From NCBI GenBank assembly GCA_019058315.1, contig JAHPZH010000002.1, positions 1,187,910-1,251,909 of the forward strand: a stretch of 64,000 nt of DNA. Reading direction: 5' to 3'. Below are positions 53,741-62,738 of this stretch, one piece after another; positions within the stretch are counted from its first letter, which is position 1, and the number at the start of each line of letters is the position of its first letter. The notes beneath the pieces were generated by a model that worked only from the letters and a program-made list of their open reading frames with translations, had not been told where the DNA came from and did no database searches. The position numbers and the translations under genes were made by a program. This stretch comes from Candidatus Helarchaeota archaeon. Lineage in GTDB: Archaea > Asgardarchaeota > Lokiarchaeia > Helarchaeales > RDOG01.

Positions 53741-55453
53741 ATGGACGAAAATATGGATGATAATATAATTAAAGAGGAAGTAAAACCAAAAATAGCTGAC
53801 GAACCTTCAAAAAAACTATCAAAAGAGGCAAGAAAAAAGCTTCGCGAAAAGAAAAGGGCTCAAACTGGTCCTTCAACTAAAATGACTTTATATCTTTGGT
53901 TTGTGCTCATTTTTGCTGGAGTTGTCACATTCTTCGATGGATGGTGTACTTTAGCAATTACTTTAGCTATGGGGGACGTCGGAATACAAGCTAATTTAAT
54001 TGAACAATTAACTAACCGCGGTCTATTCGACTATTTCGGCATTTCAAATAACCCTGTGATGATGGGTATAATTCTGAGCATAGCTGGCAGTGGAGTTGTT
54101 ATGGCAGTTTCATTTAAATATTTTGTGGATAAATATGGACGAAGACCTTTAACTCTTATCACTGCAGTTTGTTTTATTTCATTCTCCGCCTTAACTGGTT
54201 TAACTCCTCCTGGTGATACAGGCCTAATTATTTTTCTTATTTTAAGGATTCTGGCCAATTATTTCTTATCGGCTGATATCGTAACAATAATTATAGCAGA
54301 AGAAGCTCCAGATCATTTGAGAGGAAGATTAATTGGAGTAGTTTTAGCAACAAATACTGTCGGTGGTTTTATCTGTGGGATAATTCAAATGGTTGGAGTA
54401 ACAATAGAGCTACCTGGAGGTTACATTTTAAGTACTTGGCAGTCTTTATTTTTCTTATCCAGCCTTGGATTTATTTTCATAATTCCCATGTTCTTTTTCT
54501 TAAAAGAAACTTGGCGATTTGATGGTATGAAGAAATATGAGCAATGGCGAAAGAAAAGGGGGTTAGCCTCAAAAACTGGATGGGCTGTCCCTTTAAGAAG
54601 ACAATATGCGCGTGCCATGATCCTAGGCTGCATTATGGGTTTTCTTATTAACCTCATTTATTTCGCACAAGTCACATTTTTTGGAATTTACTTTGTGAAA
54701 GAATTAAACATGACTTCAAAATTTCTTGGTTTGGCATCGCTTCCATTAATGCTTTCTGCAGGAATTGGATACTATATAGCAGGCCCCTTAATGGATCGTT
54801 GGGGAAGAATTCCTACTATCCATAGATTCGGATGTACAACATTAGTTGGTGGCCTTATTTTTTCATGGCCCACGGTTTTTGTTGTTGGAGGCATTCCAAA
54901 TCCTTTACTTATGGCTCTCGTAATTGGTGGTGGAATGATGGGAATTCTATCACTTACAGTATTAATGACTGCAGCCGTACTTGTTCCGCTGGAAATGTTA
55001 CCAACTCATATTAGAAGTACTGCAATGGGTTGGATGGGAGCAATTGCAAGAGGTGCTATGATTGTATCTCCTTTCTTAATGATGTTCGGTTCTGAAACAT
55101 TAGGTGGTCTAGGACTTACCTATCAAGCCATGTTTGCACTTATGGGTATGCCCTTAACAACTCTATTGTTTTCAGCATATTTATTGGCTCCAGAGAGTAA
55201 AGGAAGAGTATTGGAAGAAATAGTTATGACAGAAATCTATACTAAACAGAAAAGAGTTGATAAAAAAGAATATAGGAGACCATATTATTATTTTGCAATG
55301 GGTATTACATCCTTCTTCTTTACAGGTTTAATTTACGGTAATACTGGTGATGGGATTTTTAAAAGTGTAATATTAATAGTAAGTATTTATAGCATAGTAT
55401 GTCTCGCTTGCTTCTTAATAGTGGTTTGGGCTCGTAATGTTATTTCAGAATAA
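53741..55453 (+). CDS. MFS transporter (sugar-porter-like)
   Basis: FKYFVDKYGRRPLTLITAV, APDHLRGRLIGV, AGPLMDRWGRIPTI, PTHIRSTAMGWMGAIARG. Confidence 0.88.
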   Translation: MDENMDDNIIKEEVKPKIADEPSKKLSKEARKKLREKKRAQTGPSTKMTLYLWFVLIFAGVVTFFDGWCTLAITLAMGDVGIQANLIEQLTNRGLFDYFGISNNPVMMGIILSIAGSGVVMAVSFKYFVDKYGRRPLTLITAVCFISFSALTGLTPPGDTGLIIFLILRILANYFLSADIVTIIIAEEAPDHLRGRLIGVVLATNTVGGFICGIIQMVGVTIELPGGYILSTWQSLFFLSSLGFIFIIPMFFFLKETWRFDGMKKYEQWRKKRGLASKTGWAVPLRRQYARAMILGCIMGFLINLIYFAQVTFFGIYFVKELNMTSKFLGLASLPLMLSAGIGYYIAGPLMDRWGRIPTIHRFGCTTLVGGLIFSWPTVFVVGGIPNPLLMALVIGGGMMGILSLTVLMTAAVLVPLEMLPTHIRSTAMGWMGAIARGAMIVSPFLMMFGSETLGGLGLTYQAMFALMGMPLTTLLFSAYLLAPESKGRVLEEIVMTEIYTKQKRVDKKEYRRPYYYFAMGITSFFFTGLIYGNTGDGIFKSVILIVSIYSIVCLACFLIVVWARNVISE

Positions 55454-56786: not shown

Positions 56787-57647
56787 ATGTCTGAAAAATA
56801 TAAAATGGATCAAAAAATCGATAAATCATTGATAACTAAGGAAACTTTCAAAGCATTCATAATAGTAATCTCAATCTGTGCATTAGCATGTTTAATTGCA
56901 TCTTTCGTTATAGCTGGTGCATTTAACGATCCTGAAAACAATCCATTAGGTCATAATCTTCAATATATTTACATTCCAATTATATTAATTATAATTGGTA
57001 CAGTAGGTGTTTCATTACCATTTGTTGTAGTTGTTGTCACACGAGTTTACATGGGTAAGTATGTAAGCAGTTTTAAATACAAGTTGACCAATTCTGCAAT
57101 AGAGATTCGCCAAGGTGTGTTCACAAAGAATAAAGTCACCATACCTTATTCACGTGTTCAAAATATTAATGTCGTGAATGGTATCTTCGATAGAATTTTT
57201 GGACTTTATACCGTTTTAATAGAAACGGCTGGTATTTCAGGAGTACAAGCACAAGGAGGTAAAATCGGAAGACCTGAGGGTTATTTACCTGGATTAAAAA
57301 ATCCACATGAATTCGAAGCAGAATTAAAACAAATGTTAGACAAGTATAATGTGTTACCATCGGGATTAGAAGAAAAAATCTTCAAGCCTCAAGAATTAGC
57401 CTTTGATAATTTTATCTCTTATATACTTAGCAAAATGAGAGATAGAGATGATTTATTAAAAACGAATGTTAAAGACCTCAGGGAAAAACAAAAAATAACC
57501 TCAATAGAGCTTGCAGCAAAAATAGGAGTTAAAAACGAAACTATAGAACTTTTAGAAGCAGGAAGATACACGCCTTCATTAAGTTTGGCGTATAAAATTG
57601 CTAAAGAATTAAAATGCAAAATAGAAGACCTATTTCAATTCGATTAA
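56787..57647 (+). CDS. Two-TM membrane protein with bacterial PH-like (bPH2) domain fused to C-terminal Xre-type HTH
   Basis: Two TM helices, SFKYKLTNSAIEIRQGVFTKNKVTIPYSRVQNINVVNGIFDRIFGLYTVLIETAG (bPH2); C-term VKDLREKQKITSIELAAKIGVKNETIELLEAGRYTPSLSLAYKIAKELKCKIEDLF. Confidence 0.82.
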   Translation: MSEKYKMDQKIDKSLITKETFKAFIIVISICALACLIASFVIAGAFNDPENNPLGHNLQYIYIPIILIIIGTVGVSLPFVVVVVTRVYMGKYVSSFKYKLTNSAIEIRQGVFTKNKVTIPYSRVQNINVVNGIFDRIFGLYTVLIETAGISGVQAQGGKIGRPEGYLPGLKNPHEFEAELKQMLDKYNVLPSGLEEKIFKPQELAFDNFISYILSKMRDRDDLLKTNVKDLREKQKITSIELAAKIGVKNETIELLEAGRYTPSLSLAYKIAKELKCKIEDLFQFD

Positions 57648-57687
57648 ATATTTTTTTAATATTTTAAAATAATAAAATGGTGCAATT

Positions 57688-58074
57688 GTGAGATTAAAAA
57701 CAAAATTAGTTTCCAAAATTAAGGAATTACGGGCGGAGAGTGACATTACTCAAGAAAAATTAGCTGAAGAAGTTGGTGTCACTCGCCAAACTATTTCCTA
57801 TTTGGAGAAAGGCGAATATAATCCCTCTCTAAAAATTGCTCATGATATTGCACAATATTTTGGAAAATCAGTGGATGATGTTTTTACATATGAAACAGTA
57901 TTAACTATTAAAAGAGAACAATTTAATCTCACTCTTGAACAATTAGCCACCCTGATTGGTATCAAAATTGAAGAATTAGAAAAATTAGTAAATGAGGAAT
58001 ATCAAAATCCTCCAGAATTTTTGAAAAAAATAGCAAAACAATTAAATTGTAAAATCGAGGATTTGGTTGAGTAA
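57688..58074 (+). CDS. Tandem Xre-type HTH transcriptional regulator
   Basis: IKELRAESDITQEKLAEEVGVTRQTISYLEKGEYNPSLKIAHDIAQYFGKSVDDVF; second unit REQFNLTLEQLATLIGIKIEELEKLVNEEYQNPPEFLKKIAKQLNCKIEDLVE. Confidence 0.88.
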   Translation: MRLKTKLVSKIKELRAESDITQEKLAEEVGVTRQTISYLEKGEYNPSLKIAHDIAQYFGKSVDDVFTYETVLTIKREQFNLTLEQLATLIGIKIEELEKLVNEEYQNPPEFLKKIAKQLNCKIEDLVE

Positions 58075-58105
58075 ATAGCTAATTATAAAAATAATTTAAC
58101 AGAAA

Positions 58106-59209
58106 GTGAATCATTTGGATAAACTAAATGAGTTTTTTGCCAAAAAATGGGCATTACCCCTATTATATTTTGTTTTAATTATTTTAAACGTGATCTTTCC
58201 TCCTATAACATCTAGAGGATATGCTGCTCAGGATACTGGAAGAGTAATATCAAGTTTATTAAATACCTCTATCATTCCTTATGTATGGTTAGCCCCTGTA
58301 TTTCATATTGCGACAATAATTTTAGTAATTATTATTTGGCGTCTAGGGGTCAAAGTAAGTAGAGTTTTTAGTTTATACATTGGTATAAATTATATTTTTA
58401 TAGGTCTTATCCAAAATTTTGGAGAAACATGGGAATTTGGTTTTGTTATATTAATCGGGACTATGATTACAGAATTCATAATAGGATTTTTATGGATATG
58501 GGATGCTTACGATCCTAAAACTGAAAGTAAATTTGAGAAACTTCCACTTTGGAGATATTGGACTATACCATTAGCGATTTTAGCATATTGGTGCCCAATT
58601 AACTCTACACAAAACATGGGACCCTATTTCAACCCACTATTTTTATTGATTTCGCCAGGGTATGGACTTACTTTTTGTATGACAACACCCGTGTTTCTAT
58701 GTATTTTAACCCTTTTCTATCCACATGTAAATAAACCCGCTCTTAAAATAACAGCTTGTGCTGGATTTATTATGGGAGTTTTGAATATGTTTAGTTTGCT
58801 CATCCCTTACACCTTTTGGATGGGTATATTGCATATTCCTTTATTGTCTATCTCAATTTATGTATTCATTTTACCTAAAATAATGAAAAATGAGCCAAAA
58901 ATTGTAAATCAAGAACTTGTAAAAATCCCCCATGTTCAAGGACGTCTTATTGGAGAAGTAAACATAGGTAAGTTAGAAGATTTTTTAATTGCAGAAAAAT
59001 CTACCGAAGGAGTAGAGGTAGGCGATATTGTTGAAATTATTGGGGGACCATTTAAAGGAGAAAAAGCAAAAATCACCCGAGTTGATACAACTGAAGATGT
59101 AGTTATTTTAGTATTATGTGAATCTACTCGCCCGATTCCAATTAAAGTTCATGCAGATTTTATTAAAAAGATAATCAGTAAAGAAAAAAGAAAGCCTGAA
59201 ATGAAATAA
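58106..59209 (+). CDS. Multi-pass membrane protein with C-terminal Spt5/NusG-like KOW domain
   Basis: About 7-8 hydrophobic segments, then STEGVEVGDIVEIIGGPFKGEKAKITRVDTTEDVVILVLCESTRPIPIKVHADFIKKI. Confidence 0.82.
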   Translation: MNHLDKLNEFFAKKWALPLLYFVLIILNVIFPPITSRGYAAQDTGRVISSLLNTSIIPYVWLAPVFHIATIILVIIIWRLGVKVSRVFSLYIGINYIFIGLIQNFGETWEFGFVILIGTMITEFIIGFLWIWDAYDPKTESKFEKLPLWRYWTIPLAILAYWCPINSTQNMGPYFNPLFLLISPGYGLTFCMTTPVFLCILTLFYPHVNKPALKITACAGFIMGVLNMFSLLIPYTFWMGILHIPLLSISIYVFILPKIMKNEPKIVNQELVKIPHVQGRLIGEVNIGKLEDFLIAEKSTEGVEVGDIVEIIGGPFKGEKAKITRVDTTEDVVILVLCESTRPIPIKVHADFIKKIISKEKRKPEMK

Positions 59210-59243
59210 TTTATTAAAAATCCAGTAAGCATAAGGTCTGGTA

Positions 59244-60935
59244 ATGAAAAAAATTGATAAAATTTCTAATATTAATGAAAAAAAAGCTATTTTACATATT
59301 AAGAAAGAATATTATTTAGATGAAACAGATTTTGAAATTGATAAAGAGGGACGAGTAGTTAAACTTCGATTACTAGAAAAATGGTTTGAAATTGCACCTG
59401 AAATTATAGGAAAACTCACTCATTTAGAAGAATTAGACCTTCAAAATAATGATTATTTTTATCCCCCAGAAGATGTTGATTCAAAAATTGGAAATTTAGA
59501 AAATCTTACCAAATTAAAAAAATTAAACCTCCATTTTAATTATCTTAAAAAAATTGAAGGTTTAGCGAATCTCTCTAATTTAAGAGAATTAGATCTTCAT
59601 ATGAATAAAATTGTAAAAATAGAGAACTTAGAAAATCTTCATAATTTAAATCACTTATACCTCTCACATAATCATATTGAAAAAATAGAGGGTTTAGAAA
59701 ATCTCACTCAATTGAAAACTTTAGATTTCGCATATAATCCAATTAAAAAAATAGAAGGATTAGAGAATCTAACTCAACTACAAACTTTAGATTTTATGCA
59801 TAATAAGATAACAAAGATCGAAGGTTTGGAAAATCTCCATAAATTGGAAGATTTAAATTTGTTTGGGAGTGTTATAAAAAAGATAGAAGGCTTAGAGCAC
59901 CTTACTCAATTAAAAAAATTAGATTTATACGGAAAAGAGATTAAAAAGATAGAAGGGTTTGAATGTCTTATTAATTTAGAAACGTTGTATTTATATGGAA
60001 ATCAAATTGAAAAAATTGAGGGGCTTGAGACTCTTTCTAAATTACAGCATCTATCTTTTAATAAAAATAAGATAAAAAAGATTGAAGGTTTAGATAATTT
60101 ATTGGAATTAGAAGGAATAAATATTTCTGAAAATGAAATTATAAAGATCGAGGGATTAGATAATCTCATTAAATTACAAAAATTAGATCTTGCCAGTAAT
60201 AAGATAAAAGAAATTAATGGTTTAAATAAATTAAATCAAGTGGAAGAAATAGACCTTTCCAATAATCAAATCGAAAAAATAATTGGGCCATTAAACCTTT
60301 CTAATTTAAAAATACTAAAAATTAAAAATAATAAGATCAAGCAAATAGAAGGGTTAGAAGAACTAACACAATTAGAGGAATTAGATTTATGTGAAAACAA
60401 AATAACGAATATTATGGGGCTAGACAGACTCGTTCAATTGAAATATTTGAATCTGGATAACAATCTAATCTATATGCTTGAAGGGTTAGATAATCTATCA
60501 AATTTAGAAAGTTTACATATTTCAGACAATAAAATAACAAAGATAGAAGGTTTAGAAAAGCTTAACCAATTAAAAAAATTAATATTAAGCTCTAATCTCA
60601 TTTCTAAAATCGAAGGTTTAGAGAATCTTCCTCAATTAGAAACTTTAACTCTACATTTTAATCAAATTAGAAAGTTGGAAGGATTAGATAATCTTATCCA
60701 TTTAACAGATCTTACCCTTGATTACAATCCTTTGGATGCAGAAGACCAAAAAATAATTAAAGAAGATATAAAAAAAATAATTTCTCATTATAAAAAGAGA
60801 GAAATAAAAGGGCTTGTTAAGCAATTGGAATTATTAAAGGCACAGTCTGAAATAGACGGACTGAATTTAGAAGATTATATTATTTTAAAAAGGAAAATAG
60901 AAAAAATTAGTAAAAAAATAAAAGATTTTAAATAA
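59244..60935 (+). CDS. SDS22-type leucine-rich repeat protein with charged C-terminal helical module
   Basis: Many 22-aa repeats of LxxLxxLxLxxNxIxKIEGLENL type. Confidence 0.92.
   Translation: MKKIDKISNINEKKAILHIKKEYYLDETDFEIDKEGRVVKLRLLEKWFEIAPEIIGKLTHLEELDLQNNDYFYPPEDVDSKIGNLENLTKLKKLNLHFNYLKKIEGLANLSNLRELDLHMNKIVKIENLENLHNLNHLYLSHNHIEKIEGLENLTQLKTLDFAYNPIKKIEGLENLTQLQTLDFMHNKITKIEGLENLHKLEDLNLFGSVIKKIEGLEHLTQLKKLDLYGKEIKKIEGFECLINLETLYLYGNQIEKIEGLETLSKLQHLSFNKNKIKKIEGLDNLLELEGINISENEIIKIEGLDNLIKLQKLDLASNKIKEINGLNKLNQVEEIDLSNNQIEKIIGPLNLSNLKILKIKNNKIKQIEGLEELTQLEELDLCENKITNIMGLDRLVQLKYLNLDNNLIYMLEGLDNLSNLESLHISDNKITKIEGLEKLNQLKKLILSSNLISKIEGLENLPQLETLTLHFNQIRKLEGLDNLIHLTDLTLDYNPLDAEDQKIIKEDIKKIISHYKKREIKGLVKQLELLKAQSEIDGLNLEDYIILKRKIEKISKKIKDFK
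59500..60720 (+). repeat. Intragenic 66-bp (22-aa) LRR-encoding tandem repeats
   Basis: Recurring aaaaaaatagaaggtttagaaaatctcactcaatta-like units. Confidence 0.85.
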
Positions 60936-61031: not shown

Positions 61032-62738
61032 GTGCATGTGATGAAAGAAAAAGAAAAGACAAAAACTACCGATCTTGAAACTTTTAAAAAATTACCAAAG
61101 GATCAACGCAAGAAAATTCGAGAAAAAAGAAGAATCGAAGCTGGTTTGCCTACAAAAATGACTATATACCTCTGGTTTGTTCTCTTCTTTGCAAGTGTCG
61201 TTACATTTTTCGATGGATGGTGTACTCTCGCAATTACGCTGGCTATGGGAAGTTTTGCTGGAGGAGTAGATTTATTGGAACAATTACTTAATCCTGATCT
61301 TTTTACATATTTTGGATTAACATCTAGTCCGGTTATGATGGGAATTATTCTTTCTATAGCAGGAATTGGAGTCGTAGTTGCCGTTTCTTTTAAATATTTT
61401 GTTGATAAATATGGTCGTCGTCCATTAACTCTTATAACTGCAGTTCCGTTTATTACATTCTCAGTTTTAACTGCATTTGTTCCTCCTAGTAGAGAAGGGT
61501 TAATTTTATTTCTTATTTTAAGGATTTGTGCTAACTACTTTCTTTCAGCTGATGTGGTAACTATTATAATAGCGGAAGAATCTCCTAATCATTTGAGAGG
61601 TAGATTGGTTTCAATGGTTCTTGCAATGAATGCAGTTGGGGGGTTTGCTTGTGGAATGATTCAAGCGACGGGAATTAAAATTCCATTCTCTGGTGCTTGG
61701 GGACCAAGTTTAAGTACCTGGCAAAGTTTATTTTTCTTGACGAGTATTGGATATTTATTTATTATTCCACTATTTATCTTCTTAAAAGAAACTAAACGAT
61801 TTGTACAAATGAAAAAATATGAAGAATGGCGAGCAAAAAAAGGATTAAAAGCTAAATCTGGATGGTTTGCACCTTTACAAAAAAAATATGCACGGGGGAT
61901 GGCAACAGGAATGATCGTTGGATTTTTAGCACAATTAATATATTTTGCTCAAGTAACCTTCTTCGCACTCTATTTTGCTAAAGAACAGAATTTAACTCCA
62001 AAGGTGGTAGGAATTGTATCATTACCACTAATGCTTGCAGCAGGAGTAGGTTATTTTGTAGCTGGACCTATATTAGACCGATGGGGAAGACTTCCCACTA
62101 TATATAGATTTGGTTGCACAACTTTAGTAGGAGGTATGGTCTTTTCATGGCCTACAGTCTTTATTGTTGGTGACATTGCCAATCCGTTACTTATGGGCAT
62201 TGTTTTAGCTGGAGGTATGATGGGTATATTCTCTCTAACAATATTAGCTGCTGCAGGAACTATTCTTCCCATGGAAATGTTACCAACTCATATTCGAAGC
62301 ACTGCTATGGGTTGGATCGGTGCTATTTCAAGAGGTGCAACTATTGTGGCTCCTTTCTTAATGATGTATGGGGCGGAAGCATTGGGTGGATTAGGACTTA
62401 CTTATCAAGCTATGTTCGCACTCATGGGAATGCCATTGACAACAATACTGTTTACTGCCTTCCTATTAGCACCTGAAAGTAAGGGAAGAGATTTGGAGGA
62501 AATCGTAGCTACTGAAACTTACTCTAAAATGAAGAAAATATCTGAAAAAGAATACAGAAGACCTTATTACTACTTTGCAATAGCCATCTCTTCATTTTAT
62601 ATTACAGGATTAATTTACGGTAATACCTCTGATGCAAATTTCTTAAATGTATTCATTATCGCGACCTTCTACACGGCGTTATGCTTGGTTTGTTTCATAT
62701 TAGTTATTCTGGTCCGTAGAATAATTACAGAGAAGTAA
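61032..62738 (+). CDS. MFS transporter, close paralogue of 53741-55453
   Basis: Shares long stretches such as SFKYFVDKYGRRPLTLITAV, HLRGRL, PTHIRSTAMGW and LGGLGLTYQAMFALMGMPLTT. Confidence 0.88.
   Translation: MHVMKEKEKTKTTDLETFKKLPKDQRKKIREKRRIEAGLPTKMTIYLWFVLFFASVVTFFDGWCTLAITLAMGSFAGGVDLLEQLLNPDLFTYFGLTSSPVMMGIILSIAGIGVVVAVSFKYFVDKYGRRPLTLITAVPFITFSVLTAFVPPSREGLILFLILRICANYFLSADVVTIIIAEESPNHLRGRLVSMVLAMNAVGGFACGMIQATGIKIPFSGAWGPSLSTWQSLFFLTSIGYLFIIPLFIFLKETKRFVQMKKYEEWRAKKGLKAKSGWFAPLQKKYARGMATGMIVGFLAQLIYFAQVTFFALYFAKEQNLTPKVVGIVSLPLMLAAGVGYFVAGPILDRWGRLPTIYRFGCTTLVGGMVFSWPTVFIVGDIANPLLMGIVLAGGMMGIFSLTILAAAGTILPMEMLPTHIRSTAMGWIGAISRGATIVAPFLMMYGAEALGGLGLTYQAMFALMGMPLTTILFTAFLLAPESKGRDLEEIVATETYSKMKKISEKEYRRPYYYFAIAISSFYITGLIYGNTSDANFLNVFIIATFYTALCLVCFILVILVRRIITEK

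What the first reader, a model, noticed from the sequence alone, without database searches (positions are those of the whole stretch)
58106..59209. Membrane protein fused to an Spt5/NusG-like KOW domain
Seen: several TM segments are followed by GDIVEIIGGPFKGEKAKITRVDTTEDVVILVLCESTRPIPIKVHADFIKKI. Established: KOW domains occur in Spt5/NusG and ribosomal proteins, and from memory this stretch resembles the archaeal Spt5 C-terminal KOW more than ribosomal KOWs. Inference: a membrane-tethered KOW could recruit RNA polymerase or ribosomes to the membrane. I do not know of a described family with this architecture.
Basis: partly seen in the sequence, partly recalled or inferred. Interest (0 to 1): 0.75.

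Follow-up and report, generated by a model that had tools for sequence, protein, structure and literature searches.

The report
Membrane protein with captured Spt5 tail
In one Asgard archaeon, a copy of the back part of the gene for the universal transcription factor Spt5 has been stuck in frame onto the end of an unrelated membrane-protein gene; it is a real, recent, so far one-species gene fusion that lacks the RNA-polymerase-binding half of Spt5, so it may be no more than an evolutionary accident.

Summary
The ORF at 58106-59209 encodes an 8-helix membrane protein (residues 1-262) followed by a genuine archaeal Spt5 segment (263-365). That segment is a duplicate of this genome's own spt5: 311 bp, 87% identical, with the intact spt5 116 kb away on the same contig. 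It keeps the whole KOW but only the last 32 of about 78 NGN residues. The missing part holds the position (M. jannaschii Ala4) whose mutation abolishes RNA polymerase binding. The acidic tail is missing too. Relatives of the membrane part, in several archaeal and bacterial phyla, end near the fusion point and none read carries a KOW. No other Asgard genome searched showed this fusion. It is therefore a lineage-specific chimeric gene, not a family. Charge pattern and helix count put the KOW in the cytoplasm. Amino-acid differences that relatives can polarise lie on the fusion side, including Glu332, conserved in 29 of 29 relatives. The likeliest reading is a recently captured tail that is weakly constrained or neutral. 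A membrane-tethered docking or decoy site for KOW partners (FttA, uS10) is possible but untested; canonical polymerase recruitment is unlikely. The same genome also encodes a separate NGN-only Spt5 paralogue, worth following up.

The parts
58106..59209 (+). whole chimeric gene: membrane domain + Spt5 C-terminal segment, 367 aa, stop TAA 59207-59209
58106..58891 (+). membrane domain (aa 1-262), about 8 transmembrane helices, family without Pfam or PDB match; relatives in Asgard and other archaea, Planctomycetota and other bacteria
58890..59200 (+). 311-bp partial duplicate of the genome's spt5 gene (native codons 54-157), 87% DNA identity; homology stops abruptly at both ends
58892..58987 (+). 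remnant of the NGN domain (aa 263-294 = native Spt5 residues 54-85; the native NGN match is residues 8-85)
59018..59107 (+). KOW motif (Pfam PF00467, aa 305-334); the KOW domain runs on to about aa 356
59060..59170 (+). tract (codons 319-355) with no synonymous and six non-synonymous codon differences from native spt5, next to a 5' part with 18 synonymous and 7 non-synonymous: a recombination or conversion mosaic
59201..59209 (+). end of the ORF (ATG AAA TAA) outside the spt5 homology; the native acidic C-terminal tail (last ~55 aa) is absent

Best explanation
A recent, lineage-specific chimeric gene. Shown: the 3' part of spt5 (codons 54-157) was copied and joined in frame to the natural 3' end of a gene for an 8-helix membrane protein of unknown function, giving that protein a Spt5 tail made of a broken NGN remnant and a full-length KOW. 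Inferred: the tail lies in the cytoplasm, with the KOW about 45 residues from the membrane. Because it lacks the polymerase-binding surface it cannot act as an Spt5, and since capture it has evolved with little constraint. It is most likely a tolerated passenger that adds at most a weak membrane-tethered docking or decoy site for KOW partners; the protein's main job remains that of the membrane domain.
For: 311 bp at 87% identity to native spt5 on the same contig, with no homology beyond it. The junction falls at the natural C-terminus of the membrane family: relatives end within about 20 residues of the last helix and none read has a KOW. Searches with the segment found one Spt5 match per relative that had any, against two in this genome; in a wider set the extra weak hits that were read are other KOW proteins or an NGN-only ORF. 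The NGN region with the polymerase-binding position is missing (PMC3223566). Amino-acid differences that can be polarised are on the fusion side (R278Q, E289K, K330E, E332V, E336V, F338C, probably Y352F) and none clearly on the native side. The 3' tract has 6 non-synonymous and 0 synonymous codon changes, as neutral drift would often give (P about 0.2).
Against: The frame is still open over 105 codons (but P(no stop) is 0.4-0.6 for 10-20 neutral changes, so this is weak). The 5' half shows 18 synonymous to 7 non-synonymous changes, so at some time this sequence was under purifying selection; that may predate capture or may mean function afterwards, and outgroups cannot polarise it (11 versus 8). 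No second genome of the genus was available to test persistence.
Confidence: 0.6

Rival explanations
1. Functional membrane tether: the cytoplasmic KOW docks a partner of Spt5 (the termination nuclease FttA, the 30S protein uS10, or nascent RNA) at the membrane, or acts as a decoy that competes with full-length Spt5 for it.
For: Full-length KOW retained, including the GGPFKGE loop; Spt5 KOW binds FttA directly in the archaeal pre-termination complex (PMC11616081) and NusG/Spt5 KOW is proposed to bind uS10 (PMC8116511). Cytoplasmic placement predicted. Purifying-type pattern in the 5' half. The genes at 56787-60935 are closely spaced on one strand (gaps of 31-40 bp), as in an operon.
Against: KOW core changes E332V, E336V and F338C hit positions kept in the nearest relatives. 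A KOW fragment alone does not stimulate FttA-dependent termination (PMC11616081). One genome only.
Confidence: 0.25
2. Split Spt5: the KOW-only membrane protein works with a separate NGN-only Spt5 paralogue of the same genome (88 aa, G000:C5:41377-41643), together giving a membrane-linked, regulated Spt5.
For: The NGN-only ORF is intact, matches Pfam Spt5-NGN (E 2.3e-10), is closest to this genome's own Spt5 (44%), and no stand-alone NGN ORF of similar length was seen among the matches in 98 relatives. The two truncated paralogues are complementary.
Against: They lie 1.2 Mb apart and have diverged to very different degrees (44% versus 81-84% protein identity to native), so they are not one split event; in the family NGN and KOW are normally one chain. 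No evidence of interaction.
Confidence: 0.06
3. Membrane recruitment of RNA polymerase.
For: Spt5-derived sequence on a membrane protein.
Against: The NGN domain, which binds the polymerase clamp, is broken: native residues 1-53, with the first strand and the GYIF strand, are absent (PMC3223566, PMC3382729).
Confidence: 0.04
4. Assembly or binning artefact joining two genes.
For: The genome is a draft of 12 contigs with 6.6% estimated contamination.
Against: Both copies sit on one 1.4-Mb contig, differ by 13% in DNA, and the copy has clean in-frame borders inside an otherwise normal gene. A misjoin would be expected to give an identical copy or to run on into spt5-flanking DNA.
Confidence: 0.03

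Closest known systems
Archaeal Spt5 (TIGR00405; PDB 9bct, 3p8b, 3qqc, 4zn1)
   Same: Residues 265-361 match model positions 49-144 at E 2.7e-21; 81-84% identical to the genome's own Spt5
   Different: Lacks the first ~60% of NGN (polymerase clamp site) and the native acidic C-terminal tail; carries about eight transmembrane helices instead
Specialised NusG paralogues (RfaH, LoaP, UpxY)
   Same: An extra copy of a NusG/Spt5-type gene next to a housekeeping one
   Different: Those keep NGN + KOW and bind polymerase; here NGN is broken and the protein is membrane-anchored
Unnamed 8-helix membrane family (relatives L005, L006, L055-L066)
   Same: Mostly 35-51% identity over the membrane domain; conserved residues kept at 34 of 38 positions that are invariant in the others
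   Different: Relatives with a complete 3' end finish near the fusion point, without a KOW
Other Asgard KOW-bearing proteins (L073 1813-2802, L074 216-1202, L075 637-2355)
   Same: KOW at the C-terminus of a non-Spt5 protein
   Different: No run of hydrophobic helices evident by eye in their sequences, and diverged KOWs

Membership tests
Spt5 / NusG (NGN + KOW elongation factor) | C-terminal KOW domain of Spt5 type | tested here: met
   PF00467 E 1.4e-7, TIGR00405 E 2.7e-21
Spt5 / NusG (NGN + KOW elongation factor) | complete NGN domain | tested here: not met
   No PF03439 match in the fusion, while the native gene has it at residues 8-85; the fusion begins at native residue 54
Spt5 / NusG (NGN + KOW elongation factor) | polymerase clamp-binding residues (M. 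jannaschii Ala4 position) | tested here: not met
   The position is in the missing N-terminal part; A4R abolishes binding (PMC3223566)
Spt5 / NusG (NGN + KOW elongation factor) | dimer with Spt4 | not testable with these tools
   Spt4 stabilises the NGN domain (PMC3382729), most of which is absent; no binding assay possible
8-helix membrane family (unnamed) | full-length homology with the family's conserved residues | tested here: met
   40% and 36-37% identity to L005 and L006; 34 of 38 columns invariant in the other rows are kept
A conserved membrane-KOW family | same architecture in at least one other genome | tested here: not met
   16 of 232 Asgard genomes have the membrane domain; their open frames, where complete, are 257-346 aa, and the relatives read end without a KOW

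The most novel reading that the evidence does not exclude
The cell has evolved a membrane-anchored KOW that captures FttA or ribosomes (possibly together with the genome's separate NGN-only Spt5), coupling transcription termination or translation to the membrane in an Asgard archaeon.
Probability: 0.12. Interest if true: 0.75.

Novelty: new variant of a known kind. Interest (0 to 1): 0.38.

Why it matters
It catches a domain shuffle soon after the event: donor gene, junction and unfused relatives of the acceptor can all be seen, in a group of archaea important for eukaryote origins and for the one transcription factor shared by all life. If the tail works, it would be the first membrane-tethered Spt5-type KOW known to us and would give a test of whether the KOW can act without NGN. 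If it does not, it is a caution against reading function into a domain architecture seen once.

Tried and rejected
Ribosomal L24/L26-type KOW: rejected on scores. Conserved architecture: rejected after genome searches. Secondary Spt5-like matches in other Asgards as further membrane fusions: the three read do not look like membrane proteins. Gene neighbourhoods of the unfused relatives, to learn the membrane domain's job: no shared neighbour seen across phyla. Pfam and PDB sequence searches and Foldseek on the model for the membrane domain: nothing significant. AlphaFold model: membrane domain moderately confident, KOW region below pLDDT 50 because the permitted alignment had no KOW rows, so it says nothing about the KOW. 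Polarising synonymous changes with outgroups: uninformative. First genome-contig scan with the single sequence: no relative. Literature searches for membrane NusG/Spt5 fusions: none.

Full report
WHAT IS THERE. Residues 305-334 match the KOW motif and residues 265-361 match the archaeal Spt5 model TIGR00405 at E 2.7e-21, above its curated cut-off, covering model positions 49-144. Solved archaeal Spt5 structures match at about 1e-18, ribosomal L24 only at 7e-4 or worse. So the KOW is an Spt5 KOW, and the Spt5 part also includes the end of the NGN domain.

WHERE IT CAME FROM. The window lies on contig 5 of a 5.8-Mb, 12-contig genome. A genome of the same order (G003) has a contig of the same length as Helarchaeota Hel_GB_B SUPR01000010.1, which places the window in the same order as Hel_GB_B by inference. 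The same contig carries the normal spt5 gene, 116 kb away, among ORFs that look like ftsZ, secE and infB (annotation by eye). The fusion segment is 311 bp at 87% DNA identity to it, native codons 54-157, with no homology beyond either border. Of 40 other genomes searched with the segment, 38 had exactly one match and two had none; only this genome has two. The nearest outgroup Spt5s are 53-63% identical to the segment, so the duplication happened on this lineage after it split from the sampled relatives.

THE ACCEPTOR. Residues 1-262 belong to a membrane family with no significant Pfam or PDB match. Relatives occur in 16 of 232 Asgard genomes, the window's own included, and, patchily, in Bathyarchaeota, Thermoplasmata, Planctomycetota, Neomarinimicrobiota, Aerophobetes and (weakly) Bacteroidales records; MAG contamination cannot be excluded for single records. 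Complete relatives stop within about 20 residues of the last helix and carry no KOW. The junction therefore lies at the natural C-terminus of the acceptor: the ancestral ending was probably close to ...KIMKNE. The best relative, from a Jordarchaeia MAG, is 51% identical in its best segment.

TOPOLOGY. Hydropathy and the AlphaFold model (membrane part mostly pLDDT 70-90) agree on about eight transmembrane helices. Loop charges alternate as the positive-inside rule demands for N-in/C-in: family mean K/R 3.5, 1.8, 2.9, 0.5, 3.7, 0.6, 2.0, 0.3, 2.3 from N-tail to C-tail. The KOW is thus predicted cytoplasmic. This is inference, not a measurement. The KOW itself was not modelled with confidence.

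WHAT THE TAIL LACKS. Native NGN spans residues 8-85; the fusion keeps only 54-85. The N-terminal strand with the position equivalent to M. jannaschii Ala4 (native ...IFAIKTT...; equivalence by inspection) is absent; A4R abolishes polymerase binding (PMC3223566). The native charged tail of about 55 residues is also absent. The KOW is the part that binds accessory factors: FttA in archaea (PMC11616081), and as proposed uS10 (PMC8116511). But a KOW fragment alone does not stimulate FttA-dependent termination (PMC11616081).

HOW IT HAS EVOLVED. Differences from native spt5 are unevenly spread. Codons 0-55 of the segment have 18 synonymous and 7 non-synonymous codon differences; codons 56-92 have 0 and 6. 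The contrast in synonymous change is significant (18/38 versus 1/31 sites, Fisher P 2.7e-5 on boundaries chosen after looking), so the two copies are a mosaic, from gene conversion, from an allele replacement in spt5, or from capture of a diverged allele. Outgroup codons cannot tell which. Where outgroups can polarise amino-acid changes, they are on the fusion side, among them E289K (E in 28/29) and E332V (E in 29/29). The open frame alone proves little: 10-20 random changes leave it open with probability 0.6-0.4. One consistent history is that the 5' synonymous changes arose while the sequence was still part of a working spt5 and that the mostly non-synonymous changes followed capture; constraint after capture is not excluded.

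VERDICT. A real, recent, single-lineage gene fusion by partial duplication of spt5. The proposed polymerase recruitment is unlikely because the polymerase-binding half is missing. A weakly constrained passenger is the most likely state; a membrane docking or decoy site for KOW partners is the serious alternative.

A LEAD. The genome also has an intact 88-aa NGN-only Spt5 paralogue (G000:C5:41377-41643), 44% identical to native Spt5, beside an AAR2-like gene, with no stand-alone counterpart of similar length among matches in 98 relatives. A genome with full-length, NGN-only and membrane-KOW Spt5 forms is unusual and deserves a check in sister genomes.

Noticed in passing
L072 1978-2244 (+) = G000:C5:41377-41643: Intact 88-aa NGN-only Spt5 paralogue (PF03439 E 2.3e-10), 44% identical to the native NGN, not seen as a stand-alone ORF of similar length in 98 relatives.
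   Followed up: partly
L072 1100-1942 (+): AAR2-like protein (a splicing-factor family in eukaryotes; PF20981 and PF05282, E 6e-14 and 6e-13) directly upstream of the NGN-only gene.
   Followed up: no
window 56787-57647 (+): Membrane protein with a bacterial PH domain (bPH_2) fused to a C-terminal Cro/C1-type HTH: a second membrane-plus-nucleic-acid-binding fusion, two genes upstream of the finding.
   Followed up: partly
window 53741-55453 and 61032-62738 (+): Two MFS transporters, 68% identical, flank the region as direct repeats.
   Followed up: partly
L073 1813-2802, L074 216-1202 (-): Other Asgard genus (g44): 328-329 aa proteins with a C-terminal KOW-like domain next to a GTPase-like gene; unknown family.
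   Followed up: partly
L075 637-2355 (+): 572-aa Asgard protein with two Spt5-like KOWs at the C-terminus (PF00467 E 3e-10) and a possible zinc ribbon.
   Followed up: partly
window 59244-60935 (+): 563-aa leucine-rich-repeat protein starting 34 bp after the fusion gene, possibly in the same operon.
   Followed up: no
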